From positions 186,001 to 250,000 of the forward strand of contig NZ_BDCI01000001.1 of assembly GCF_001613425.1 (NCBI RefSeq): DNA of 64,000 bases. The letters are read 5' to 3'. The notes beneath the pieces are model-generated. The model was not told the origin of the DNA. It worked only from the letters and a program-made list of their open reading frames with translations, and made no database searches. Source of the DNA: Nocardia vulneris. Its GTDB lineage: Bacteria > Actinomycetota > Actinomycetes > Mycobacteriales > Mycobacteriaceae. Both the position numbers and the translations under genes were made by a program. Of the stretch, positions 30,554 through 62,150 are shown one piece after another; position 1 is the first letter of the stretch; each line of letters starts with the position of its first letter.

Positions 30554-32832
30554 TGACGACCAGGGAAATCAAACACGTGGTAGGCAGTTTCGCCGAGGTC
30601 CCGTTGACGGACCCGGCCGCCGCACCCGCGGCGGTCGACGCCGCGCAGGTCGACGCCTACGTGCGCGAGGCCGCCACGGCGAACCACTATGCGCCCGAGC
30701 AGTTGACCTGGTCGACGCCCGAAGGTATCGACGTGCCACCGGTGTTCACCAGGGCCGACCGGGATGCCGTTGTGGCCGAGGGGTATCCGCTCGACACCGT
30801 GCCGGGCGTCGCGCCGTTCGTGCGCGGGCCGTACCCGACGATGTACGTCAATCAGCCGTGGACCATCCGCCAGTACGCCGGCTTCTCCACCGCCGCGGAC
30901 TCGAATGCCTTCTACCGCCGCAACCTGCAGGCCGGGCAGAAGGGCCTCTCGGTCGCGTTCGACCTGGCGACGCACCGCGGTTACGACTCCGATCACCCGC
31001 GCGTGCAGGGTGACGTCGGCATGGCCGGTGTCGCCATCGACTCGATTCTCGACATGCGTCAGCTCTTCGACCACATCCCGCTCGATCAGGTCAGCGTGTC
31101 GATGACGATGAACGGCGCGGTGCTGCCCATCCTCGCGCTGTATGTCGTTGCGGCAGAAGAGCAAGGCGTCGCGCCCGAGCAGCTGGCCGGAACCATTCAG
31201 AACGACATTCTGAAAGAGTTCATGGTCCGCAACACCTACATCTATCCGCCCAAACCCTCGATGCGGATCATCTCCGACATCTTCGCCTACACCAGCGCCA
31301 AGATGCCGAAGTTCAACTCGATCTCCATCTCCGGCTACCACATTCAGGAAGCGGGCGCGACCGCCGATCTGGAGCTGGCCTACACCCTCGCCGACGGTGT
31401 GGAGTACATCCGGGCGGGGATCGACGCGGGCATGGCGGTGGACAAGTTCGCGCCGCGGCTCTCGTTCTTCTGGGCGATCGGCATGAACTTCTTCATGGAG
31501 GTCGCCAAGCTGCGCGCCGGACGGCTGCTGTGGAGCGAACTCGTCGCGAAATTCGAGCCGAAGAGCGCGAAATCGCTGTCGCTGCGCACGCATTCGCAGA
31601 CCTCGGGCTGGTCGCTCACCGCGCAGGACGCCTACAACAACGTGGCCCGCACCTGCATCGAGGCGATGGCCGCGACCCAGGGACACACCCAGTCGCTGCA
31701 CACCAACGCGCTGGACGAGGCGCTGGCCCTGCCGACGGACTTCTCCGCCCGCATCGCGCGCAACACCCAGCTGCTGATCCAGCAGGAGTCCAACACCACC
31801 CGTCCGGTGGACCCGTGGGGCGGTTCGTATTACGTCGAATGGCTGACCCATCAGCTGGCCAACCGGGCCCGCGCGCACATCGAAGAGGTGGAAGCGCACG
31901 GCGGCATGGCCCAGGCGATCGGCGAGGGCATCCCGAAGCTGCGCATCGAAGAGGCCGCGGCCCGCACCCAGGCCCGGATCGACACCGGTCAGCAGCCGGT
32001 GATCGGGGTCAACAAGTATCAGGCCGAAGAGGACCAGCAGGTCGAGGTCCTCAAGGTGGAGAACTCGCGGGTGCGCGCCGAGCAGATCGAGAAGCTGCGC
32101 CGGCTGCGCGCCGAACGGGATTCGGGCGAGGTCGAACGGGCGCTCGCCGAATTGACCAGGGCCGCGGCGTCTTCCGAAGGCGGCATGGCGAACAACCTGC
32201 TCGCCCTGGCCATTGATGCCGCCCGCGCCAAGGCCACGGTCGGTGAGATCTCCGACGCGCTGGAGCAGGTGTACGGCAGGCACCAGGCGGAGATCCGTAC
32301 GCTGTCCGGTGTGTACCGCGACGAGGCCGGCAAGGTCACCAACATCACCACCGCGAGCGGTCTGGTCGAGGAGTTCGCCGAGGCGGAGGGGCGTCGCCCG
32401 CGCATCCTGGTCGCGAAAATGGGACAGGACGGCCACGACCGCGGACAGAAGGTGATCGCCACCGCCTTCGCCGACCTCGGCTTCGACGTCGACGTGGGCC
32501 CGCTGTTCCAGACCCCCGAAGAGGTGGCGCAGCAGGCGGCCGACAACGACGTGCACGTCGTCGGTGTGTCGTCGCTGGCGGCCGGCCACCTCACGCTGGT
32601 GCCCGCTTTGCGGCAGGCACTGGCCGAGGCGGGGCGACCCGACATCATGGTGATCGTCGGCGGCGTGATCCCGCCGGACGATTTCGCCGCGCTGTACGAG
32701 GCGGGCGCGGCGGCGATCTTCCCGCCGGGCACCGTCATCGCCGATGCCGCGATCGATCTGCTGAAGAAGCTCGCGCACGAGCTCGGCCACGAAATCGGCA
32801 GCGGCGCCGGCGAATCCGCCGCCACCGAATGA
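30553..32832 (+). CDS. mutB: Methylmalonyl-CoA mutase large (catalytic) subunit
   Basis: 759 aa. The substrate barrel has [33 protein letters not shown] and [27 protein letters not shown]. The C-terminal B12 domain (about 610-750) has the cobalamin motif GQDGHDRG with the lower-ligand His, then SLAAGH and GGVIPPDD. It binds adenosylcobalamin and carries out the radical carbon-skeleton rearrangement. It overlaps mutA by one base and meaB by 4 bp. Confidence 0.98.
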
Positions 32833-51022: not shown

Positions 51023-52024
51023 CTACTCTTCCTTCTTGGCCCGGCTCGGCTGCACCCGCGGCGGTTCGTTCGGCATCTTCGGATACTGCGGCGGCCACGG
51101 CGCGTCGAGCAGACCCGAGGCCATATCCCGCTCCGACATCTCCAACAGCGGCGCGATGGACTGCGGCGTACGGTCGGCCCACGGATCGCCGAACTCGGTC
51201 AGCCGCGCGGGCACGGTGGCGATGGTGAGTTCGTCGGGCACGACGTCGGCCAACGCGTCCCAGGTGATCGGCGTGGACACCTGCGCGCCGACCTTCGGGC
51301 GCACGCACCACGCACCGAAAACCGTTTTGTGCGGCGCGTTCTGATTGAAGTCGACGAATACCCGATTGCCGCGCTCTTCCTTCCACCACTGCGCGGTGAT
51401 CTCGTCCGGATGCCTGCGCTCCAGTTCCCTGGCCAGCGCGACGGCGGCCGCGCGCACCTGGTAGCCGTCCCAATTCGGTGCCAGCGCAACGTAGATGTGC
51501 AGACCGCGTGAGCCGGAGGTCTTGATCCGCGACTCGATGCCCAGCTCGGTGAACAGGTCGCGGGTGAGCCCGGCCGCCCGTCTGAGATCGTCGAACGTGA
51601 TGCCGGGCGACGGATCGAGGTCGATCCGCAGTTCGTCGGCGATCTGCAGATTGTCCGCCCGGTTCGGCCACACGTGGAAACCGAGACAGCCCTGGTTCAC
51701 CGCCCACAGGATGTGCGCGAGGTCGTGCGCGACGAGCGCGTCGCTGGTGGTGCCGTTCGGTGTGGACACCTCCACGGTGTGCAACCAGTCCGGCGCCGAC
51801 TTGGGCACCCGCTTCTGGAACCACGACTTCCCGGACGCACCATCGGGATACCGCTCCAACAGCAGCGGCCGCCCGCCGACGACACTCAGGAACGGCTCGG
51901 CCACCGCCTGGTAGTAGCGGACCAGGTCCAGCTTCGTCTCGCCACGCTTGGTGAAGTAGACCTTGCCGGGATTGCTGATGGTGACGGTCCGGCCGTCGAC
52001 CTCGATATCGACCGATTCACTCAT
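51023..52024 (-). CDS. polD1: LigD-like primase-polymerase (PolD1/Rv3730c type)
   Basis: 333 aa. An archaeo-eukaryotic primase (AEP) domain: start SNPGKVYFTKRGETKLDLVRYYQAVAEP, catalytic DxD in IDLDPSPG, SGSRGLHIYV, and WEERGNRVFVDFNQN-like region. These are the LigD polymerase motifs. The protein has no ligase or nuclease domain. The gene follows ligC, as in mycobacteria where PolD1 and LigC act together in a base-excision-linked pathway. The gap to ligC is filled by three 77-bp repeats. Its start is preceded by GAGGTG. Confidence 0.92.
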   Translation of the reverse strand: MSESVDIEVDGRTVTISNPGKVYFTKRGETKLDLVRYYQAVAEPFLSVVGGRPLLLERYPDGASGKSWFQKRVPKSAPDWLHTVEVSTPNGTTSDALVAHDLAHILWAVNQGCLGFHVWPNRADNLQIADELRIDLDPSPGITFDDLRRAAGLTRDLFTELGIESRIKTSGSRGLHIYVALAPNWDGYQVRAAAVALARELERRHPDEITAQWWKEERGNRVFVDFNQNAPHKTVFGAWCVRPKVGAQVSTPITWDALADVVPDELTIATVPARLTEFGDPWADRTPQSIAPLLEMSERDMASGLLDAPWPPQYPKMPNEPPRVQPSRAKKEE

Positions 52025-52029
52025 GCCTG

Positions 52030-52270
52030 CACCTCGCTGGCGCTCGGTTCCGTCATGCGCGAGGCACGCTGTGACATGGTTCGCTCACTACGTTCGCTCA
52101 TGACTCCACCTCGCTGGCGCTCGGTTCCGTCATGCGCGAGGCGCGCTGTGACATGGTTCGCTCACTACGTTCGCTCACGACTCCACCTCGCTGGCGCTCG
52201 GTTCCGTCATGCGCGAGGCGCGCTGTGACATGGTTCGCTCACTACGTTCGCTCACGACTGCACCTCGCTG
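52030..52270. repeat. Three tandem 77-bp repeats between polD1 and ligC
   Basis: Units start at 52030, 52107 and 52184; a fourth stops after 10 bp at 52261-52270. They are almost identical: unit 1 differs at two positions, unit 3 at its last base. Read on the minus strand, each unit contains AGCGAGGTG (a ribosome-binding site) a few bases before ATGA or GTGA. The polD1 start and the final four codons and stop of ligC lie in repeat-derived or repeat-like sequence. Unit length 77 is not a multiple of three. Confidence 0.93.
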
Positions 52271-53334
52271 AAGATCTCACTCAGCTCCGCGGGCGGCGCC
52301 TCGTCCAGCTGTGCGTAGGTGCATGATTCGGGGGTGCGGTCGGTGCGGAACCGGACCAGTCTGCCGCCGTGCCGGAGCCGGCCGGACTGCACGTGTTCGT
52401 AGCGGACCTCGGCGACCAGTTCGGTGCGCAACGCCTCCCAGGAGAGGTCCTTGCCGCCGGTCCAGCGGCTCACCCCGCCGGGCATCTTGCCGTCGGCCCT
52501 GGCTTGCGCCGCGGCGTCGGCCCATTCACGCCACGGATGGTTTTCCAGCGCGTTCTCCCGCAGCGGCGCGAGCTCGTCGACCAGTTCTTTGCGCCGGGCC
52601 GCGGTGAAGCTGCTCGCCACGCCGACGTGGTGCAGGTTGCCCTCGTCGTCGAAGAGCCCGAGCAGCAGCGAGCCGACGCCTTCCCCGTCCTTGTGCCAGC
52701 GGAACCCGGCGACCACGCAGTCGGCGGTGCGTTCGTGCTTGACCTTCAGCATCACGCGCTTGTCCTGCAGGTAGGCCAGCCCGTCGGCCTTGACCATGAC
52801 ACCGTCGAAGCCCGCGCCCTCGAACCGGGTGAACCAGTCCTCGGCGACGTCGGGGTCCTGGGTGATGGGAGTCAGGTGCACTCGTGCGGGTTCGGTGTCG
52901 AGGATGGTCTCGAGCAGTCGCCTGCGTTCGGCGAACGGCTCCTCGGTGAGGTCGCGGTCGCCGAGGGCGAGCAGATCGAACGCGACGAAACTGGCCGGCG
53001 TCTCCACCGCCAGCTTGTTGACCCGGGACGCGGCCGGATGCAGCCGGTTCTGCAGCGTGTCGAAGTCCAGGCCCTGATCGGTCACCACGACGATCTCGCC
53101 GTCGACCACGCACCGGTCCGGCAGCGCCTGCTGCAACAACTCGGCGACCTCGGGGAAATACCTGGTCAACGGGCGGTCGTTGCGGGAGCCGAGCTCCACC
53201 TCGGCCCCGTCGCGGAAGACGATGCAGCGGAAGCCGTCCCATTTCGGCTCGTAGCTGAGCCCGGGTTCACGGGGCACGCCCGGCGCGGTTTTGGCGAGCA
53301 TCGGCCGGACAGGTGGCATCACCGGTAAGTCCAC
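52252..53334 (-). CDS. ligC: ATP-dependent DNA ligase (LigC type)
   Basis: 360 aa from GTG at 53334 (GAGGAGGG 8 nt upstream). Nucleotidyl transferase motifs: YEPKWDGFR (Lys adenylation site), LGSRNDRPLTRYFPE, VVDGEIVV, ASFVAFDLLAL, FDGVMVKADGL and MLKVKHERTADCVVAGFRWHKDGEGVGSLLLGLFDD leading into the OB domain. Length and lack of extra domains match LigC, used with PolD1 in DNA repair. The C-terminal SEVQS is encoded inside the 77-bp repeat element, so it may have been changed by the repeat expansion. Confidence 0.93.
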   Translation of the reverse strand: MDLPVMPPVRPMLAKTAPGVPREPGLSYEPKWDGFRCIVFRDGAEVELGSRNDRPLTRYFPEVAELLQQALPDRCVVDGEIVVVTDQGLDFDTLQNRLHPAASRVNKLAVETPASFVAFDLLALGDRDLTEEPFAERRRLLETILDTEPARVHLTPITQDPDVAEDWFTRFEGAGFDGVMVKADGLAYLQDKRVMLKVKHERTADCVVAGFRWHKDGEGVGSLLLGLFDDEGNLHHVGVASSFTAARRKELVDELAPLRENALENHPWREWADAAAQARADGKMPGGVSRWTGGKDLSWEALRTELVAEVRYEHVQSGRLRHGGRLVRFRTDRTPESCTYAQLDEAPPAELSEIFSEVQS

Positions 53335-53908: not shown

Positions 53909-55009
53909 TTAGCCCGCCTTATCCTCGTCGTTGGACGAAAGCGCCTTTTGTAATGAATTGAAAACCGTGAGTCCTTGACCGACCATTCCGTTCACCAGTT
54001 CGCCGACTCCGTCCGGCCCGTTGAGCACGGTGAGATTGGCGTTCGCCAGCCCGTTCGAGGCCTGCTTCACGATTTCGGGCAGCTGCTCGATCAACAACTG
54101 GTCCAACGCGATCCGGTTGTTCGACGCGGCCGCGGCGGCCTGGATCCGGGTGCGGTCGGCCTCGGCCTCGGCCAGGATGCGCACCCGATCCGCTTCCGCC
54201 TGAGCGGGTTTCACGACTTCGGTCTGCAACTGCTGCTCGCGCAGCTCGGCCTCCTTGCGCGCCTGCTCGGCCTGCGCTGTGAGCACCTCCTGCAAGGCCA
54301 TCGCCTCGGCGAGCGGACCTGCCTGTGCCGCTTCGGCATTCGCCTTGTCGATATCGCGCTGGTACTGCGCGCGCAGGATCGCGGTCTCGCGCTGGTACTC
54401 GGCCTGCCTGCGCAGCGACTCCTGTTCGGCCTGCGCCGCGAGCTGCGCCGCCTGGGACTGGGCGATCTGCGCGTCGCGCTGCACGCTGGCATTGTGCGGT
54501 GCGGCCAGCGCCTGAATGTAGCCGAGATTTCCGTCGTCGATGGACTGGATCTGGAACGAATCGACCCAGAGGCCGATATTGCCCATCTCCACTTTGGACG
54601 CGACCAGGACCTCGTCGGCCAGCTTCTGGCGTTCCCGGATGATCTCCTCGACCGTCATCGAGCCGACGATCGAGCGCAGGTGACCGGAGAAGATGCGGCC
54701 GGTGAGCACCGACATCTCCTTTTCCTGTTCGGACAGGAAGCGTTGCGCCGCATTGACGATCGACTGGGTGTCGTTGGCGACCTTGAACGCGATCACCGCG
54801 CGCACTTCGAGCTGGATCGCCTGCTTGGTGACGCAGCGCTCCTTGATCTCGGCCTCGAACATGGCCAGCGAGAGGTAGCGCACCTTACGGAACAGCGGCA
54901 CCACCCAGCTGCCGCGGCCGATCACCACCTTGAACGGCGTGTTGTCTTTGCTCTTGGCGCCGCTGATCAGCATCGCCTCGTCCGGGTCGGGTACGTGGTA
55001 ACCCAGCAC
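53909..55009 (-). CDS. SPFH/flotillin-like membrane microdomain protein
   Basis: 366 aa from GTG at 55009 (AAGGGAG upstream). The SPFH domain (about 25-190) contains RKVRYLSLAMFEAEIKERCVTKQAIQLEVRAVIAFKV and the ERQKLADEVLV region, then a coiled coil of about 120 residues rich in EA/AEQ heptads (QAAQLAAQAEQESLRRQAEYQRETA). No N-terminal transmembrane anchor is seen, so association may need the partner. It is encoded directly after an NfeD-like small protein, the usual pairing. Flotillin-like proteins organise membrane domains and sites of cell-wall synthesis. Confidence 0.9.
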   Translation of the reverse strand: MLGYHVPDPDEAMLISGAKSKDNTPFKVVIGRGSWVVPLFRKVRYLSLAMFEAEIKERCVTKQAIQLEVRAVIAFKVANDTQSIVNAAQRFLSEQEKEMSVLTGRIFSGHLRSIVGSMTVEEIIRERQKLADEVLVASKVEMGNIGLWVDSFQIQSIDDGNLGYIQALAAPHNASVQRDAQIAQSQAAQLAAQAEQESLRRQAEYQRETAILRAQYQRDIDKANAEAAQAGPLAEAMALQEVLTAQAEQARKEAELREQQLQTEVVKPAQAEADRVRILAEAEADRTRIQAAAAASNNRIALDQLLIEQLPEIVKQASNGLANANLTVLNGPDGVGELVNGMVGQGLTVFNSLQKALSSNDEDKAG

Positions 55010-55028: not shown

Positions 55029-55262
55029 TCAAATTCCTTCGGCCGGATCCGGCGTCAGCGGAATCCAGGGCACCACATCGACGATGCGTCCGGGATGGAC
55101 CTCGATGACCAGCACCGCGGTGCCTGCCGGAATCGCTTCGGCCGCACGGGCGATGTACAGCTCTGTGCCCCCGCGAATCGCCACCAAGACCTCCCCTAAC
55201 ATGCCCGCACCCCGGATGGGCGAGGTGAGCGTACCCGTCAAACCGACCACGGGGTCGCTCAT
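55029..55262 (-). CDS. Small NfeD/OB-fold-like protein, partner of the SPFH protein
   Basis: 77 aa from ATG at 55262 (GGAGGAG upstream). An OB-fold pattern GLTGTLTSPIRGAGMLGEVLVAIRGGTELYIARAAEAIPAGTAVLVIEVHPGRIVDVVPW, resembling the C-terminal NfeD domain, without the membrane or protease parts of NfeD1b. It lies 19 bp upstream of the SPFH gene, giving an NfeD-flotillin operon. Confidence 0.75.
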   Translation of the reverse strand: MSDPVVGLTGTLTSPIRGAGMLGEVLVAIRGGTELYIARAAEAIPAGTAVLVIEVHPGRIVDVVPWIPLTPDPAEGI

Positions 55263-55439
55263 CGCACCGATCTCCTCCCACTGACAGTCCGAGTGGTCAC
55301 ACTACGTCCCGGACAGTGGGTTTCCCAGGCGACAGGGCCGGGTGAATCCGGTTCGTGACCACGGGAGTTGCTCCGCGCGCGGGCGTAGGGGGTGAACGAC
55401 CAGGTTGCGGGTGTCTCAGTATGCCGAGATGTGCGCGGG

Positions 55440-55451
55440 TATGTTGCTTGC
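55440..55451 (+). promoter_or_regulatory. Leaderless promoter of the first caspase-like gene
   Basis: TATGTT (55440-55445) is followed by GCTTGC and then the ATG at 55452. A -10 hexamer ending 6 nt before the start codon places transcription initiation at the ATG, with no room for a ribosome-binding site. The paralogue at 58515 has the same TAT(G/C)TT-GCTTGC-ATG arrangement. Confidence 0.6.
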
Positions 55452-58400
55452 ATGGGAGGACGGCTCGCGTTGGTGGTCGGGTCCGAATGTGTGGCGCTGG
55501 GGGAGCTGGGATTCACCGGCGAACTCGCAACGGGTTTGTATGGGAGTTTGACCGAGGCCGGTGGGTGGCGCGCGGCGACGGACGAGGACGGTCCGGTACT
55601 GAATCCGACAGCGGCGCAACTGGTCACGGCGGTGGACGAGGCGTTCGCGGCGGCCGCGCAGCGGCAGGCGACATTGCTGCTCGCTTTCATCGGCCACGGC
55701 GTGGCGACCAATGCCGAGGATTTCTATCTGCTCGGTCATGACTCGCCCGCGAACCCGAACTCGCACAATGCCTTTCATCTGACGCAGGAGATCAGGGAGC
55801 GGCTGAACCAGGCGGCGCTGGACGGGCTGGTGGTGCTGGTCGACGCCTGCGAGACCGGGCAGGGCGTGCTCGGTGCCGCGCGCCGGTGGACCGATCTGCT
55901 CGCGCAGTCGGCGGGGCGGATGGAGATGCTGGTCGCGGCGAGCGACGGCCCGGCGTTCTCCGGATGCTTCACCAGGACCATGCTGTCCACCTTCGGCGCC
56001 GGGTTGCCGCTGCGCGGCGAGAACCTGTTGCCCGCCGATCTGGTCGATCCGATCGCGGGCGAGTGCGTTCATCAACAGCCGCAGTACCTTTCGTTCACCT
56101 CCGGCGCGGTGTCGGTGGAACACGGCGCCGACCCGGGACTCTGGTTGGTGCCCAACACCGCCCGGCACCGCGACGCCGTGAGCGGGCGCTCCGCAGCGGG
56201 ATTCGTCGACCAGCTCACCCGCGGGCTGCTGGTGACCCCCGACGTGCGCGAGCACCTGGACGCCATCGTCGACGCCGGGTCGCATCGCCTGCGCGTGGTG
56301 ATCGGACCGACCGGTGCGGGCAAATCGACGTTGCTGGCCATGCTGATTCGGCCGAGCCTGGTCGAGGGCTTGGCGGTGACTCCCGAATACATCACCGCGG
56401 CAGTGTTTCTCACCGCCGCGAGCTCGATCGAGGCGGTCGCGGCCGAGCTCGCCGCCCAATTGAGCGCGCGCCTGCCCGGTTTCGCCGATGCCGCGCGGTC
56501 CGTGCGCGCGCACCGATCGCGCGACGAGTTCGACATCTTCGACATCGCGGTGCGTCATCCGCTGGCGCGGCTGTCCACCGCGGGCCGCCGGGTGACGCTG
56601 GTGTTCGACGGGCTCAACCAGCCCCAGCCGGGCACCCGGCGGCTGCTCTGCGCCGCCATCTGCGATCTCACGAAACGCGAAGACCTGCGCCATGTCCGGG
56701 TGATCGCCGGGGTGCGCGACGGTACCGGCGTGGAAGACGAGCCCACCCTGGCGCACATGCACCGGATCGAGGTCGGCGAGCCCGCCGCCGACGATATCGC
56801 CACCGTCGTGGGATCGGCGCGCGGCACCGGTGCGCCGGCCGATCCCGCCGATTGGGTGCAGTGGATCCAGGGCCTGCTGTCCGAAACACCAACGGCCGTC
56901 GAGGACGACACGCACGTGGTCTCCGGCGGCTGGCTGCTGGCACGCATGCTGCTCGAGGTGGCGCCGAGCATCACCGACGGCGCGGTGGCCGCCGGGATCG
57001 GCCTGGACCGGATCGTCACCCTGCGCGTCGACGCGGCGCTGCGCGGCATGCAGCCCGACACCGTGCACGCCGCAGGCACCTACCTCGGCGTGCTCATCGC
57101 CGCGGGCGTCGGGCCGGTGCTGCCGATCGAACTCGCCGACGCGGCGCTGACCTCGCTCGGCATCGATCTGCACATCGCCCGGATCCGCGATATCACGGTG
57201 GCGCTCGGCGCGCTCGTCACCCGCAGTCACCCCGGCACGCTGCGGGAATCGATCGGCGTGACGCACGGCGCGTTGCTGCCCGGCCTGCGCGCGGAATGCA
57301 AGCAGCTCGGCGTGGAGATCGAGGACGCGCACCGGGCCATCATCGCCGCCATCAAACACAGTCAGAGCGATCGCGCCGCCGACTACGCCCGCGGTTCGGC
57401 GGTGCGGCACTGCCTGGCCTACCGGGATTCCACCAGCGCGCTGCACTTCCTGGAGATGTTGCAGACCGCGCGCGCCGCCGACAACCGGGACCTGTGGGCG
57501 GCCTGGGTACCCGCGTTCGTCGAAACCCTCGGCCCCGACCATCCGGACACCCTGACGACCCGCAGCCGCGAGGCCTATCACCGGGCCGAGAGCGGTGACT
57601 ACCTCGGTGCCATCACGGCTTTCGAGCAGCTGCTCGTCGACCGGCTCCGGGTGCTGGGCCCCGATCACCCGAAAACCCTTGGTACGCGCACCAATCTGGC
57701 CACCTACCGCGCCCGGTGCGGCGACTATCCCGGTGCTCGGGCGGATTACCAGCGCCTGCTCGCCGATCAGATCCGGCTACTCGGTCCCGACCATCCCGAT
57801 ACCCTGCGCACCCGCAACGACCTGGCGTCCAATCGTGCCGACCAGGGCGACCTGGTCGGTGCGATCATCGATTTCGAGGCCCTGCGTGCCGACCGTGCCC
57901 GCATCCTCGGTCCCGACGACCCGCAAACCCTGCGCACCCGCAACAGCCTCGCCTACTGGCACGGCGAACACGGCGACGTCACCGCGGCGCTGCACGAATT
58001 CGAGCAACTGCTCACCGACTGCCTGCGCATCTTCGGCCCGGACCATCCGGCCACCCTCAACGCTCGCAACAATCTCGCGGCGTTTCGCGCGCGCAGCGGT
58101 GATATCGCCGGTGCGCGCGCCGAATTCACGCACCTGCTCGACGACCGGGTCCGGGTGCTCGGCGCGGATCATCCCGACACGCTCACCACCCGGAGCACGC
58201 TGGCCTCGTATCGCGCCGACGCGGGTGAGCTGCCCTGCGCCATCGCCGAACTCGAACAGCTGCTGGCCGATCGCCTGCGGGTGCTCGGTCCCGATCATCC
58301 CGACACCTTCGCCACCCGCAACGACCTGGCGTCCCGGCAGGCAGAACACGGCGACCTCCGCAAAGCGATCGCCGAACTGGAAGTCCTGCTGGTGGCCGAA

Positions 58401-58484
58401 CTCCGCGCCCTGGGGCCGACCCACGCCGCGACGATCCGCACGCAGACCACGCTCGCGCACTGGCGCGCCCGTCTCGCGGGATAG
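55452..58484 (+). CDS. Caspase-like / STAND-type NTPase / TPR protein, copy 1
   Basis: 1010 aa from ATG at 55452, a leaderless start. Residues 1-210 are a caspase-like peptidase: the His in LLAFIGHGV (His82) and Cys in VLVDACETGQG (Cys133) form the probable dyad, with the C14-type spacing. A P-loop NTPase follows: VVIGPTGAGKST (285-292) and VTLVFDG (Asp386), then a helical linker. The C-terminus (about 700-1010) is a TPR array of 42-residue kinesin-light-chain type units (LGPDHPDTLxTRNxLA), seven full and one partial. Partner, trigger and substrates are unknown. It resembles self-activating bacterial effector-NTPase-sensor proteins of anti-phage or cell-death type; it could also act in development. 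Confidence 0.88.
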   Translation: MGGRLALVVGSECVALGELGFTGELATGLYGSLTEAGGWRAATDEDGPVLNPTAAQLVTAVDEAFAAAAQRQATLLLAFIGHGVATNAEDFYLLGHDSPANPNSHNAFHLTQEIRERLNQAALDGLVVLVDACETGQGVLGAARRWTDLLAQSAGRMEMLVAASDGPAFSGCFTRTMLSTFGAGLPLRGENLLPADLVDPIAGECVHQQPQYLSFTSGAVSVEHGADPGLWLVPNTARHRDAVSGRSAAGFVDQLTRGLLVTPDVREHLDAIVDAGSHRLRVVIGPTGAGKSTLLAMLIRPSLVEGLAVTPEYITAAVFLTAASSIEAVAAELAAQLSARLPGFADAARSVRAHRSRDEFDIFDIAVRHPLARLSTAGRRVTLVFDGLNQPQPGTRRLLCAAICDLTKREDLRHVRVIAGVRDGTGVEDEPTLAHMHRIEVGEPAADDIATVVGSARGTGAPADPADWVQWIQGLLSETPTAVEDDTHVVSGGWLLARMLLEVAPSITDGAVAAGIGLDRIVTLRVDAALRGMQPDTVHAAGTYLGVLIAAGVGPVLPIELADAALTSLGIDLHIARIRDITVALGALVTRSHPGTLRESIGVTHGALLPGLRAECKQLGVEIEDAHRAIIAAIKHSQSDRAADYARGSAVRHCLAYRDSTSALHFLEMLQTARAADNRDLWAAWVPAFVETLGPDHPDTLTTRSREAYHRAESGDYLGAITAFEQLLVDRLRVLGPDHPKTLGTRTNLATYRARCGDYPGARADYQRLLADQIRLLGPDHPDTLRTRNDLASNRADQGDLVGAIIDFEALRADRARILGPDDPQTLRTRNSLAYWHGEHGDVTAALHEFEQLLTDCLRIFGPDHPATLNARNNLAAFRARSGDIAGARAEFTHLLDDRVRVLGADHPDTLTTRSTLASYRADAGELPCAIAELEQLLADRLRVLGPDHPDTFATRNDLASRQAEHGDLRKAIAELEVLLVAELRALGPTHAATIRTQTTLAHWRARLAG

Positions 58485-58502
58485 CGCGGTCCGGCCGGCG
58501 GG

Positions 58503-58514
58503 TATCTTGCTTGC
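58503..58514 (+). promoter_or_regulatory. Leaderless promoter of the second caspase-like gene
   Basis: TATCTT (58503-58508), then GCTTGC and the ATG at 58515. It repeats the promoter arrangement of copy 1 only 18 bp after that gene's stop, so copy 2 can be transcribed on its own. Confidence 0.6.
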
Positions 58515-61500
58515 ATGGGAGGACGGCTCGCGCTGGTGGTGGGGTCGGAGTGCGTCGCGCTGGGGGAGTTGGGGTTCACCGCGGCGCTGGCCGGTGACCT
58601 GTACGGCGGCCTGTGCCGGTCCGGGGGATGGGCGGCGGCGACCGGCACGGCCGGGCCGGTGCTGAATCCCACTGCCGCCGAGCTGGTGTCGGTGATGGAC
58701 GAGGCGTTCCGGGTCGCGTCCGAGCAGCGGGCGACCTTGCTCGTCGCGTTCATCGGCCACGGGGTCGCGACCGGTGCCGGCGACTTCTTCCTGCTCGCGC
58801 ACGATTCTCCGGCGGTGCCGCGCTCGCACAACGCCTTTCACCTCGCCCAGGGTATCCGGGAACGATTGAACGAGTCGACGCTGGACGGACTGATCGTGCT
58901 GATCGACGCCTGCGAGACCGAACAGGGCCTCCGCGGTGCGGCCACCCGATGGACCGATCTGCTCGCCGACGCCGCGGGCCGGATGGAGCTACTGGTCGCC
59001 TCGGGGGCCGGGCCCGCGTACTCCGGCTGTTTCACGCGCACGGTGCTGGCGACGTTCGACACCGGCCTGCCGCTGCGCGGTGAGACCCTGCTCGCGCACG
59101 ATCTGGTGGACCCGATCGCGCGCAGCTGCCTGCGCCAGGAACCACAGCACCTGTCCTTCACCGCGGGCACGGTGACCGGCACGGCGGGCGGCGATCCCGG
59201 ATTGTGGTTGGTGCCCAACGCCGCTCGGCGGCGCGACGCGCTGACCGGGCGGCCCGCGGCCGGTCTGCTGGATCAGCTCACGCGAGACGTGGTGGTGACC
59301 GACGCGCTGCGCGAAAGCCTGATCGATCTCGTCGAATCGGGCGGGCGGCGCCTGCGCGCGGTGGTCGGGCCGGTCGGGTCCGGCAAATCGACGCTGCTGG
59401 CACTGCTGATCCGGCCGAGCGTGGCCGAGGGGCTGCCGATCGCGCCCGAATACGTCACCGCGGCAGTGTTTCTCACCGCGAGCAGCTCGCTCGAGACCGC
59501 GGTCGGGGAGCTGGCGGAGCAGCTGGCGGATCGGCTGCCCGGGTATACCCGCGCCGCCCGCGTGCCCTGGGCCGGGGCGGGCGAGCCGGACATCTTCGAA
59601 CTCGAGCTGGCCGCCCCGCTGGCCCGATTGCGCCGGGCGGGGCAGCGGATCACGCTCGTGTTCGACGGACTCGATCTACCGGAGCCGGGGAGCCGGGATC
59701 TGCTGATCGACGCCGTCGCCGAGCTGACCGAGCGGCCCGAGCTGCCGCACGTCCGCGTCATCGTCGGCGTGCGGGCCGGCGCGGCGGCGCAGGCCGATCC
59801 TCGGCTCGGGCACATGCATTCGATCGCGATCACCGGGCCCGGGGTCGGTGAGATCGCTGCCGAGGTGCAGCGCGGCGATCGGCCGCCGCACTCCGCCGAC
59901 ACCGGGTACCAGGGCATCGACTACATGGGCGGCGATCTCGGACCCAGTACGGGTGCACGGGTTCCGGCCGGTTGGCTGCTGGCCAAGCTGCTGCGCGAAC
60001 TACATCCGAGCGCGCGGGACCGGCTGTCCTCGCGCGCCGACATCGATACCCTTGCCGCCCAACGTCTCCGGCTCGCCGCGGAGTCGGCGGCACCCGAGGT
60101 CGCGAACGCCATCGGCCCGATGGTGGCGATCCTCGTCGCGGCGGGCGTGGGCCCGGTGCTGCCCATCGAGGTGCTGGAAACCGCGCTGGCCGAATGGCAG
60201 CGACCGCTGCGCACCGCCGGAATCCGGGACGCCGCAGCCGGACTCGGCGCCCTGCTCACCCGCAGCCGTCCCGGGACGGCGGACGAAGCGCTCGGCATCG
60301 CGCACGATGTGCTGCTCGCGGGTCTGGCGCAAGCCTGCGGTGCGCTGCAGGCGAGCATCGAGGACGCGCACACCGCGATACTGCTGGCGATCCGGACGCG
60401 CGACGGCGAACGGAGCGAGGAATACGCCCGTGCCGCGGGTGCGCGGCACTACCTCGCCGGCGGCGACGGCCGCCGGGCGGTCGAGCACCTCGTCGAACTC
60501 GAAACCGCCCGCGCCGCCGACAACCGGGACATGTGGGCGGCGTGGGTGCCCTCGATCGCGGCCGTGATCGGCGATCGGCATCCGGATACATTGCGCGCCA
60601 GGGAGTATCTCGCGATCCGGCGCGCGGACAGCGGTGACTTCCGCGGTGCGGTCGCCGACTACGAGCGGGTGCTCGCCGACGAGATCGCGATCTTCGGCGC
60701 CGAGCATCGCAACACCCTCTCGACCCGCTATCGGCTCGCGGCCGCGCGCGGGGAGATCCGCGATCCGGCGGGCGCCGCGGCGGAACTGGAAGACGTGCTC
60801 GCGGACCAGCGCCGCGTCCTCGGCGCGGACGACCCGGATACCCTGCGTACCCGCGGCAAGCTGGCGTCGTTGCGTGCGGTACAGGGCGATCTGGCCGGTG
60901 CGATCGCCGAAACCGAAGAGCTGCTGGCGATTCGGCGTCGTGTGCTCGGTCCGGCGCACCCCGAGACCTTGGCGACCCGGGGCAATCTGGCCGGATATCG
61001 CGTCATGGGCGGTGATTCGGCGACTACCGTCGACGAGCTACAGAGTTTGCTGGCTGAGCAGCTGGGGGTGCTGGCGTCCGATGACCCGCGCGTACTGCTC
61101 ACCCGGGCCAAACTCGCCACTGCGCGAGCCCGTGGCGGCGATACCGCCGGAGCGATCGCCGCGGGCGAGGTGCTGCTGGCCGATCAGGTGCGCGTGCTCG
61201 GTCCCGAGGATCCCGTCACCTTGCGCACTCGGGCCGATCTGGCCGGCTATCGGGCGCGCGGCGGGGACCTGGACGCGGCGATCGAGGAGCTGTACAGCGC
61301 ACTGACCGAGCGGATCAAGGTGCTGGGGCCTGATCACCGTGAAATCCTCTACACCAGAGGCAATCTCGCTTATCTGCGGGCGAAGAACGGCGACCTGCAC
61401 AGCGGACTGCGCGAGGCGCGGCTGGTACTGGACGACCAGGTGCGGGTCCTGGGCAGCGACCACCCGGACACCTTCGTCACCCGCGGCAATCTCGCGGCCT

Positions 61501-61775
61501 TCCGAGCCAAGACCGGGCAGGTGGTGGCCGCGGAGGCGGAAAGCCGTGCGTTGCTCGCGGATCAACTGCGCGTCCTCGGCCCCGAGCATCCGCAAACCCT
61601 GCTGACCCGCAACAACCTCGCCGCCTACCGCGCCAGAAATGGGGACGTGCCCGGCGCGGTCGCCGAACTGACCGCCCTCCTCGGCGACCGCGAGCGCATC
61701 CTCGGCCCCGACCACCCCGACACCGTCCGCACCCGGGAAAACCTCACCCACTGGCTGTCCCGACCCGCCCCCTGA
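58515..61775 (+). CDS. Caspase-like / STAND-type NTPase / TPR protein, copy 2
   Basis: 1086 aa from ATG at 58515. It is a full paralogue of the previous gene: His82 (VAFIGHGV) and Cys133 (VLIDACETEQG) at identical positions, Walker A VVGPVGSGKST at 284-293, VTLVFDG-like ITLVFDGLDLPEPGS, and the same N-terminal MGGRLALVVGSECVALGELGF. The TPR array is longer: nine full 42-residue units plus a cap (GPDHPDTVRTRENL). So the enzymatic parts are strongly conserved while the sensing array differs in length and sequence. Tandem duplication with divergent sensors is what one expects of recognition genes. Function is inferred only. Confidence 0.88.
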   Translation: MGGRLALVVGSECVALGELGFTAALAGDLYGGLCRSGGWAAATGTAGPVLNPTAAELVSVMDEAFRVASEQRATLLVAFIGHGVATGAGDFFLLAHDSPAVPRSHNAFHLAQGIRERLNESTLDGLIVLIDACETEQGLRGAATRWTDLLADAAGRMELLVASGAGPAYSGCFTRTVLATFDTGLPLRGETLLAHDLVDPIARSCLRQEPQHLSFTAGTVTGTAGGDPGLWLVPNAARRRDALTGRPAAGLLDQLTRDVVVTDALRESLIDLVESGGRRLRAVVGPVGSGKSTLLALLIRPSVAEGLPIAPEYVTAAVFLTASSSLETAVGELAEQLADRLPGYTRAARVPWAGAGEPDIFELELAAPLARLRRAGQRITLVFDGLDLPEPGSRDLLIDAVAELTERPELPHVRVIVGVRAGAAAQADPRLGHMHSIAITGPGVGEIAAEVQRGDRPPHSADTGYQGIDYMGGDLGPSTGARVPAGWLLAKLLRELHPSARDRLSSRADIDTLAAQRLRLAAESAAPEVANAIGPMVAILVAAGVGPVLPIEVLETALAEWQRPLRTAGIRDAAAGLGALLTRSRPGTADEALGIAHDVLLAGLAQACGALQASIEDAHTAILLAIRTRDGERSEEYARAAGARHYLAGGDGRRAVEHLVELETARAADNRDMWAAWVPSIAAVIGDRHPDTLRAREYLAIRRADSGDFRGAVADYERVLADEIAIFGAEHRNTLSTRYRLAAARGEIRDPAGAAAELEDVLADQRRVLGADDPDTLRTRGKLASLRAVQGDLAGAIAETEELLAIRRRVLGPAHPETLATRGNLAGYRVMGGDSATTVDELQSLLAEQLGVLASDDPRVLLTRAKLATARARGGDTAGAIAAGEVLLADQVRVLGPEDPVTLRTRADLAGYRARGGDLDAAIEELYSALTERIKVLGPDHREILYTRGNLAYLRAKNGDLHSGLREARLVLDDQVRVLGSDHPDTFVTRGNLAAFRAKTGQVVAAEAESRALLADQLRVLGPEHPQTLLTRNNLAAYRARNGDVPGAVAELTALLGDRERILGPDHPDTVRTRENLTHWLSRPAP

Positions 61776-61784
61776 CCACGGACA

Positions 61785-62150
61785 TCAGCGCAGATCGTGG
61801 GCCAGTTTGGTGGCGCCGACCAGGAAGTAGCTTCCGGTCAGGGCGGTCATGGCGAGTGCGACCGGTCGCGGGAGGTCGCCGCGCACGCTGTGTGCGGCGC
61901 CGTGCGTCGTGTCGATGAGGTCGACCAGCAACGCCAGCCGCTGCCACCGCGTCTGCTCCGGACCCGTCGCGCCGAGATACCCCAGCCCCAGCGCGAGTGC
62001 CCGTGCACCGAAAATCCTTGTCATATAGGTCAGTTCCGGCGTGGGCCGAATTCCGAACGCCTTCGCGAACGGCCCGGGGACGGCCAGCGCCGCGACCCCG
62101 AGGACGATCCGGCCCACCGCGAGACCGCGCAGCGCACTAGTAATTCCCAT
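61785..62150 (-). CDS. Small multi-pass membrane protein, function unknown
   Basis: 121 aa with four predicted transmembrane helices: LRGLAVGRIVLGVAALAV, YMTRIFGARALALGLGYLG, LALLVDLIDTTHGAAHS, and VALAMTALTGSYFLVG. The charged residues in helices 2 and 3 (RARxL, DLIDTTH) resemble DUF4267-type small membrane proteins. No function known. It is convergent with the second caspase-like gene, 9 bp apart. Confidence 0.65.
   Translation of the reverse strand: MGITSALRGLAVGRIVLGVAALAVPGPFAKAFGIRPTPELTYMTRIFGARALALGLGYLGATGPEQTRWQRLALLVDLIDTTHGAAHSVRGDLPRPVALAMTALTGSYFLVGATKLAHDLR

What the first reader, a model, noticed from the sequence alone, without database searches (positions are those of the whole stretch)
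55452..61775. Tandem caspase-like / NTPase / TPR paralogues: candidate conflict or programmed-death system
Two adjacent ~3-kb genes encode the same architecture: N-terminal caspase-like protease (His82 and Cys133 at identical positions), STAND-like P-loop NTPase (Walker A at 285-292, FDG Walker B) and a C-terminal TPR array. Effector-NTPase-repeat-sensor proteins are typical of bacterial anti-phage and cell-suicide systems, and of NLR-like proteins. Conserved effector and NTPase with diversified TPR sensors suggests recognition of different triggers. I know of no named system matching this exact pair.
Basis: partly seen in the sequence, partly recalled or inferred. Interest (0 to 1): 0.88.

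Follow-up and report, generated by a model that had tools for sequence, protein, structure and literature searches.

The report
Caspase-NLR pair with unlinked hydrolase partner
Two neighbouring Nocardia genes encode caspase-like proteases joined to an ATPase switch and a repeat-built sensor arm; their family travels through Nocardia genomes together with one particular hydrolase gene, which they are predicted to switch on by cutting it, likely to kill or arrest infected cells.

Summary

The new result lies outside the window. An alpha/beta-hydrolase (E<=1e-60) is present in 40 of those 41 genomes and in 0 of the other 107, and the link holds on independent tree pairs (7 pairs, none opposite). 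It lies beside the caspase gene in some genomes, and far away in others (another contig here).

In 120 hydrolases two otherwise hypervariable loops each hold a conserved AQG-like motif (QG in 120/120 and 108/120). The motif follows the caspase subclass: kept in VMAP-type systems with related caspases, absent beside other caspases. I infer that the caspase cuts these loops to activate the hydrolase.

Caspase/alpha-beta-hydrolase pairing is published for VMAP systems. The NLR-like chassis, the unlinked partner and the candidate cut sites are what I add. Anti-phage function is untested.

The parts
55452..58484 (+). Gene A: caspase - STAND NTPase - TPR protein, 1010 aa
   Evidence: Open ORF; Pfam; AlphaFold2 model mean pLDDT 87.2, pTM 0.84
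58515..61775 (+). Gene B: tandem paralogue of A, 1086 aa
   Evidence: Open ORF; 53% identical to A
55452..56156 (+). A residues 1-235: caspase domain
55695..55697 (+). A His82 codon (caspase dyad)
   Evidence: H in 108 of 108 non-gap rows of A1
55848..55850 (+). A Cys133 codon (caspase dyad)
   Evidence: C in 109 of 109 rows of A1
56157..57491 (+). A residues 236-680: STAND NTPase and following helical region
56304..56327 (+). A Walker A (residues 285-292)
   Evidence: G285, K291, S292 in 109 of 109 rows
57492..58481 (+). A residues 681-1010: TPR array, about 8 units
   Evidence: TPR_10 E=1.1e-37; unit count by regular expression
58515..59219 (+). B residues 1-235: caspase domain
   Evidence: 71.5% identical to A's; not modelled separately
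58758..58760 (+). B His82 codon
   Evidence: Sequence; row of A1 and A2
58911..58913 (+). B Cys133 codon
   Evidence: Sequence; invariant column
59367..59390 (+). B Walker A (residues 285-292)
   Evidence: Sequence; invariant columns
60540..61772 (+). B residues 676-1086: TPR array, about 10 units
   Evidence: TPR_12 E=1.7e-26
53909..55009 (-). Flank, not part of the system: SPFH/flotillin-like gene marking the insertion site
   Evidence: Band_7 E=6e-21; in 131 of 148 Nocardia genomes
55029..55262 (-). Flank: small NfeD-like gene next to the SPFH gene
   Evidence: NfeD E=7e-4, below cut-off
61785..62150 (-). Flank on the other side: DUF4267-like gene
   Evidence: E=6e-4, below cut-off

Best explanation
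A and B are NLR-like caspases that likely act as alternative sensors for one shared effector, an alpha/beta-hydrolase encoded elsewhere in the genome, which they are predicted to switch on by cutting two of its loops. Inferred cycle: a trigger (phage or other damage, unknown) binds the TPR arm; the STAND NTPase exchanges nucleotide and oligomerises; the N-terminal caspases are brought together and become active; they cleave the hydrolase at the AQG motifs of two variable loops; the freed serine hydrolase attacks a cellular substrate, perhaps membrane lipid, and the cell dies or stops growing. Shown here: the domain architecture, the conserved catalytic residues, the caspase and STAND folds (in predicted models), the coupled presence and absence of caspase and hydrolase genes, the conserved Ser/Asp/His motifs of the hydrolase, the two AQG loops, and their correspondence with the caspase subclass. 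Inferred: trigger, oligomerisation, cleavage, activation rather than inactivation, target, use of one hydrolase by all sensors, and any anti-phage benefit.
Against: G035 has a caspase-STAND protein (37%) but no hydrolase even at E<=1e-20. The 1e-60 threshold for the hydrolase was set after seeing the gap; at 1e-20, 45 of 148 genomes match, and the five extra ones (35-41% identity) lack this caspase family. Three genomes of another genus have a distant caspase-STAND (34-36%) without the hydrolase. The hydrolase was not modelled, so I cannot show that the AQG loops cover its active site, nor that they are cut. One VMAP-type hydrolase (L141) lacks the loop 1 motif, and one hydrolase beside a WD40-type gene (L118) has an AQG near loop 1. 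Loop alignment at about 33% identity is uncertain. Neither mobile-element nor known defence genes were found among the nine neighbour proteins scanned; orthologues are under purifying selection.
Confidence: 0.5

Rival explanations
1. The caspase domain is itself the executioner: after TPR sensing and STAND oligomerisation it cuts many cellular proteins or its own chassis, and the hydrolase is an accessory that acts in parallel (for example on lipid or as a signal maker), not a substrate.
For: Intact dyad in all rows that have the columns; the STAND-oligomerised effector logic needs no second protein; one caspase-positive genome, G035, lacks the hydrolase.
Against: Near-perfect coupling (40 of 41, 0 of 107) and the motif/caspase-subclass correspondence are not predicted by independent action.
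Confidence: 0.22
2. The hydrolase is the sensed or guarded host enzyme, or an upstream signal generator, and the caspase-NLR responds to it; cleavage would then be feedback or inactivation.
For: Same co-occurrence data; unlinked location in the N. brasiliensis clade.
Against: At E<=1e-60 the hydrolase was found in none of the 107 genomes without the caspase, odd for a guarded housekeeping enzyme; its relatives sit directly upstream of VMAP-type and WD40-type caspase genes.
Confidence: 0.13
3. The system controls a developmental or stress programme (envelope, aerial growth) rather than defence.
For: Chromosomal, conserved site, purifying selection in all domains and unchanged length among close orthologues.
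Against: Patchy presence with repeated gain or loss (10 changes on the tree) and several paralogues per genome suit conflict better.
Confidence: 0.12

Closest known systems
Caspase-VMAP ternary conflict systems (Kaur et al. 2020, PMC7159879; passages seen)
   Same: A caspase always neighboured by an alpha/beta-hydrolase gene; on Streptomyces plasmids the hydrolase is of the same family (31-37% identity) and the caspases are the nearest subclass in my HMM scores; QG loops shared.
   Different: Here the caspase is fused to STAND NTPase-TPR, and no VMAP, MoxR or vWA match was found among the neighbours scanned; the hydrolase is divergent next door or far away, not upstream in an operon.
AP-ATPase-TPR and caspase neighbourhoods with bDLD3 or NPCBM (Kaur et al. 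2021, PMC8195603; passages seen)
   Same: AP-ATPase (STAND) fused to TPR, and caspases, encoded together as predicted counter-invader systems.
   Different: In those passages caspase and AP-ATPase-TPR are parts of gene neighbourhoods with adaptor or lectin-like domains; here they are one chain, without such domains found by Pfam.
canu caspase-nuclease defence (PMC12799240; passages seen)
   Same: MALT1-like caspase paired with an effector; two insertions with conserved residues as proposed cut sites; TPRs occur in some canu loci.
   Different: The effector is an MBL-fold nuclease there and an alpha/beta serine hydrolase here; canu caspases carry Ig-like domains, and no STAND NTPase was mentioned in the passages seen.
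EACC1-caspase two-gene systems (PMC7159879; NCBIfam NF047832)
   Same: N-terminal caspase followed by variable domains, among them STAND and repeats.
   Different: No EACC1 gene at the locus; NF047832 scores 41.6 and 38.6 bits against a cut-off of 140.
Metacaspase-NACHT-WD40 proteins (PMC3501461; passages seen)
   Same: Caspase - NTPase - repeat order.
   Different: TPR instead of WD40; the WD40 type found here in other Nocardia has a more distant caspase and hydrolases without the two aligned QG loops.
Apaf-1 / STAND-TPR proteins (PDB 3sfz, 6mfv)
   Different: The caspase is on the same chain; no CARD-like adaptor was found by Pfam.

Membership tests
Caspase / peptidase C14 | His-Cys dyad | tested here: met
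   H82 108/108 non-gap, C133 109/109 rows
Caspase / peptidase C14 | Caspase-like fold | tested here: met
   [not shown]
Caspase / peptidase C14 | Pfam PF00656 curated cut-off | tested here: not met
   A 18.9 against 21.4 bits; B no hit up to E=1
Caspase / peptidase C14 | Proteolytic activity | not testable with these tools
   Needs biochemistry
STAND NTPase (NLR-like) | P-loop and Walker B | tested here: met
   G285, K291, S292, D386 invariant in 109 rows; AAA_16 and NPHP3_N above cut-off in A, NPHP3_N in B
STAND NTPase (NLR-like) | NTPase module followed by a repeat arm in a STAND-like arrangement | tested here: met
   Predicted model of A aligns with STAND-TPR 6mfv over 611 residues and with Apaf-1 over 410; the winged-helix part was not tested by itself
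STAND NTPase (NLR-like) | Ligand-driven oligomerisation | not testable with these tools
   -
VMAP ternary system | VMAP, MoxR and vWA genes together | tested here: not met
   None among the nine neighbour proteins scanned; VMAP-C not found in own genome, though the control search found it in only 1 of 2 VMAP-type records
VMAP ternary system | Caspase accompanied by alpha/beta-hydrolase | tested here: met
   Genome-level co-occurrence 40 of 41; in this genome not a neighbouring gene
EACC1-caspase system | 5' EACC1 gene | tested here: not met
   Only EACC1 hit of the genome is at C47:55389, another contig than A and B (C1), the other two members (C2, C3) and the hydrolase (C10)
canu | Partner MBL-fold nuclease | tested here: inconclusive
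   None among the nine neighbour proteins scanned; whole genome not searched for one
canu | Effector with two active-site-blocking insertions holding conserved residues | tested here: inconclusive
   Two variable loops with a conserved QG in the hydrolase; that they block the active site was not tested
Anti-phage defence system | Protection against phage | not testable with these tools
   -

The most novel reading that the evidence does not exclude
A bacterial apoptosome-like network: several caspase-NLR sensors at separate chromosomal sites (four genes in this genome) converge on one unlinked serine-hydrolase pro-effector that is unlocked by cutting two AQG loops, and the same caspase-hydrolase cassette has been moved between VMAP and STAND-TPR chassis.
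Probability: 0.33. Interest if true: 0.8.

Novelty: new variant of a known kind. Interest (0 to 1): 0.62.

Why it matters
It ties a class of bacterial caspase-NLR proteins to a specific substrate candidate, with named residues on both sides, so that the open question of what the caspases of such conflict systems cut becomes a simple purified-protein experiment. It would also show a many-sensors-to-one-effector layout, as in animal and plant NLR networks, held together by co-inheritance rather than by an operon, which gene-neighbourhood searches would miss.

Tried and rejected
SPFH/NfeD as partner: next door at this site, but near-core (SPFH in 131 of 148 genomes) and still there where the caspase gene is missing, so it marks the site only. 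EACC1 and VMAP membership: see Membership tests. Diversifying TPR: not seen among close orthologues. Uma2-like nuclease (c86): beside B in only 2 loci. BTAD-FHA regulator (c88): 2 loci only. Carriage on mobile records: caspase-STAND part, no match in 72,556 plasmid records at E<=1e-10 (the VMAP-type caspases there are too distant for that search); hydrolase, none in 50,697 phage records, and none of the 4 pattern matches in viral contigs was a relative. PADLOC named a weak 'caspase' match in A (E=3.6e-4) and weak matches over the P-loop, nothing for two hydrolases and one WD40-type protein. Fold search with the full model by Foldseek was filled by TPR proteins, hence the domain model. A wider family survey found few carriers: caspase 7 of 301, hydrolase 7 of 301 at 1e-20, shared by G000, G028, G070 and G400; G167, G192 and G208 have a distant caspase-STAND without the hydrolase, G083, G110 and G416 a distant hydrolase without this caspase (only 3 and 7 candidates per genome were scored). 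In the genus searches 8 and up to 15 candidates per genome were scored. Literature searches whose listed rows showed no paper with caspase-STAND-TPR plus alpha/beta-hydrolase: (lists were capped).
Full report

Who has it. The organism is probably N. brasiliensis or a sister: a named N. brasiliensis genome holds B at 95%. The window's own genome has four members with caspase and NTPase: A, B, one on C3 (49% to B) and one on C2 (41%). With residues 1-680 of A as query, 41 of 148 Nocardia genomes have a match at E<=1e-10; 29 of the 41 have two or more matches, some of them pieces of one gene. The homology search listed 120 of 143 proteins, mostly Nocardia, some Mycobacterium, Rhodococcus, Micromonospora and metagenomic.

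The site. A lies beside an SPFH/NfeD-like pair. In L061, L062, L064, L066-L069 and L087 the order is SPFH - caspase gene - c8 - c9 (an extra ORF between c8 and c9 in L061, L064 and L067); in L090, L095, L103, L107 and L109 the SPFH side meets c8 without the caspase gene. The tandem pair is at this site in the window, in L012/L013 and L050/L051 (N. brasiliensis group), L052, L053 and L055; in L054 (G093) my caller gave one gene, but a second caspase part is there. So the locus is a presence/absence site, not a core gene.

The partner. One gene recurred beside the caspase gene in eight loci, each time divergent: an alpha/beta-hydrolase of about 305 aa (Abhydrolase_6 E=3e-4, below cut-off). Five of those loci are at the SPFH site (L057-L060, L088), three elsewhere (L080, L081, L084). 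Later loci add divergent neighbours in L125, L126 and L137 and a convergent one in L124. Searched in the same 148 genomes it is strong (E<=1e-60) in 40, and all 40 are caspase-positive; the 41st, G035, lacks it. In the window's genome it is on another contig, C10:144715-145635; in G047, one contig, it is about 3.2 Mb from the caspase pair. In six genomes of the wider clade it has a fixed site of its own (L110-L115). G087, inside that clade, lacks the caspase gene at the SPFH site (L090) and the hydrolase at its own site (L130), with flanks kept; these sites are 3.9 Mb apart in that genome. G082 lacks both as well, though its contig at the hydrolase site is only 9 kb (L134).

Is it only shared ancestry? 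Fisher's test gives 1.7e-35 but ignores kinship. On a tree of the SPFH gene from 63 of the 148 genomes the caspase label needs 10 changes and the hydrolase 9. Of 7 independent pairs on supported branches that differ in caspase, the hydrolase goes the same way in 6.8 on average, does not differ in 0.2 and never goes the opposite way (median p 0.016). Threshold note: at E<=1e-20, 45 of 148 genomes match the hydrolase; the five extra (G067, G083, G090, G110, G124; 35-41% identity) lack this caspase family, and in G067, G083 and G110 the hydrolase sits beside a large gene that clusters with the caspase-STAND-WD40 type (in G110 the called ORF starts inside the NTPase). Beyond Nocardia, a genome of another genus (G400; its contig has the length of a Rhodococcus MAG contig) has both genes divergent and adjacent. 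Of 120 listed hydrolases, 26 share the exact longest-contig length with a listed caspase protein, against 0 when lengths are shifted by one.

Candidate cut sites. Ser, Asp and His motifs of the hydrolase are conserved (HSLGS, DD, H; catalytic roles recalled from the fold). In 120 homologues two loops are hypervariable except for a short motif: loop 1 (G)AQG, QG in 120 of 120; loop 2 [A/P]QG, QG 108, MG 10, QS 2. Ranked by how poorly the flanks are conserved, AQG (loop 2), GAQ and AQG (loop 1) come first, second and third of 77 conserved tripeptides. Remote members of the hydrolase family are on plasmids (16 records). I fetched 12; 11 of the 12 have a caspase-like or CHAT gene next door by profile, motif or annotation. 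This is weak for L147 (only the Cys motif and a P-loop), L149 (only GHG and a P-loop) and L150 (CHAT by annotation alone); L148 is unresolved. Five are VMAP-type Streptomyces loci: VMAP-M2 was found in the three scanned (L140, L141, L143); L144 I assign by operon order and caspase score, L145 by caspase score alone. In these five, loop 1 keeps QG in 4 and loop 2 in 5, and their caspases score 69.7-84.9 bits against the window-family profile. In the other seven plus L138, QG is in 0 of 8 in either loop (one AMG in loop 1), and 3 of these 8 neighbours hit the profile, at 21-32 bits; four Nocardia WD40-type proteins hit at 20-38. Among the nine other-type Nocardia hydrolases none has AQG at the loop 1 position, though L118 has an AQG a few residues on. 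Motif and protease subclass thus go together, which I read as substrate and protease co-evolving. Loop alignments at this distance are uncertain.

How it most likely works. TPR arm senses, STAND NTPase gathers the caspases, caspases cut the hydrolase loops, hydrolase acts. These steps are inference. Published precedents: caspase and alpha/beta-hydrolase 'operate together' in VMAP systems (PMC7159879, passages); [quoted passage not shown] alpha/beta-hydrolase domains fused to bDLD3 are taken to act on membrane lipids (PMC8195603, passages). That all four caspase-NLRs of this genome use the one hydrolase is my inference from there being a single hydrolase match at E<=1e-20 and from the caspase being the most conserved domain between A and B.

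What speaks against a defence role. Neither mobile-element nor known defence genes were found among the nine neighbour proteins scanned, and orthologues are under purifying selection. What speaks for it is patchiness, copy number, architecture and parts shared with predicted conflict systems.

Novelty. Architecture type and caspase/hydrolase pairing are known separately; in the rows and passages I saw, nothing joins them in a STAND-TPR protein or reports the two-loop motif or the unlinked many-to-one layout (searches; open-licence library only, capped lists). I rate it a new variant of a known kind.

Noticed in passing
window 51023-52024 and 52252-53334 (-): A split LigD: separate primase-polymerase and ATP-dependent ligase genes side by side, next to a cold-shock-domain gene; conserved beside the SPFH gene in many of the fetched Nocardia loci.
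   Followed up: partly
window 53909-55009 and 55029-55262 (-): SPFH/flotillin-like gene (131 of 148 genomes) with a 77-aa NfeD-like partner, keeping together in two different genomic settings.
   Followed up: partly
L053:10302-10910 and L050:14701-15354: Uma2-type putative nuclease ORF between A and B in one genome (G079) and behind B in another (G047).
   Followed up: partly
L118, L119, L120, L122, L123, L127, L128: A cluster of caspase-STAND-WD40-type proteins in other Nocardia (1344-1468 aa, the L119 call shorter; Pfam run on L128 only; the caspase profile hits L120, L122, L127 and L128). A distant hydrolase relative is the neighbouring gene in each; in L123 my caller missed it, but the search places it there.
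   Followed up: partly
[not shown]
   Followed up: partly
window 30575-30664: ARAGORN calls a 90-nt tRNA-Gln (ttg), long for that tRNA.
   Followed up: no
window 55416-57668 (-): A 750-aa open frame antisense to A, most likely a GC-rich shadow frame.
   Followed up: no
G000 C47:55389-55691: The genome's single EACC1-domain match lies on another contig than the caspase genes of this finding.
   Followed up: no
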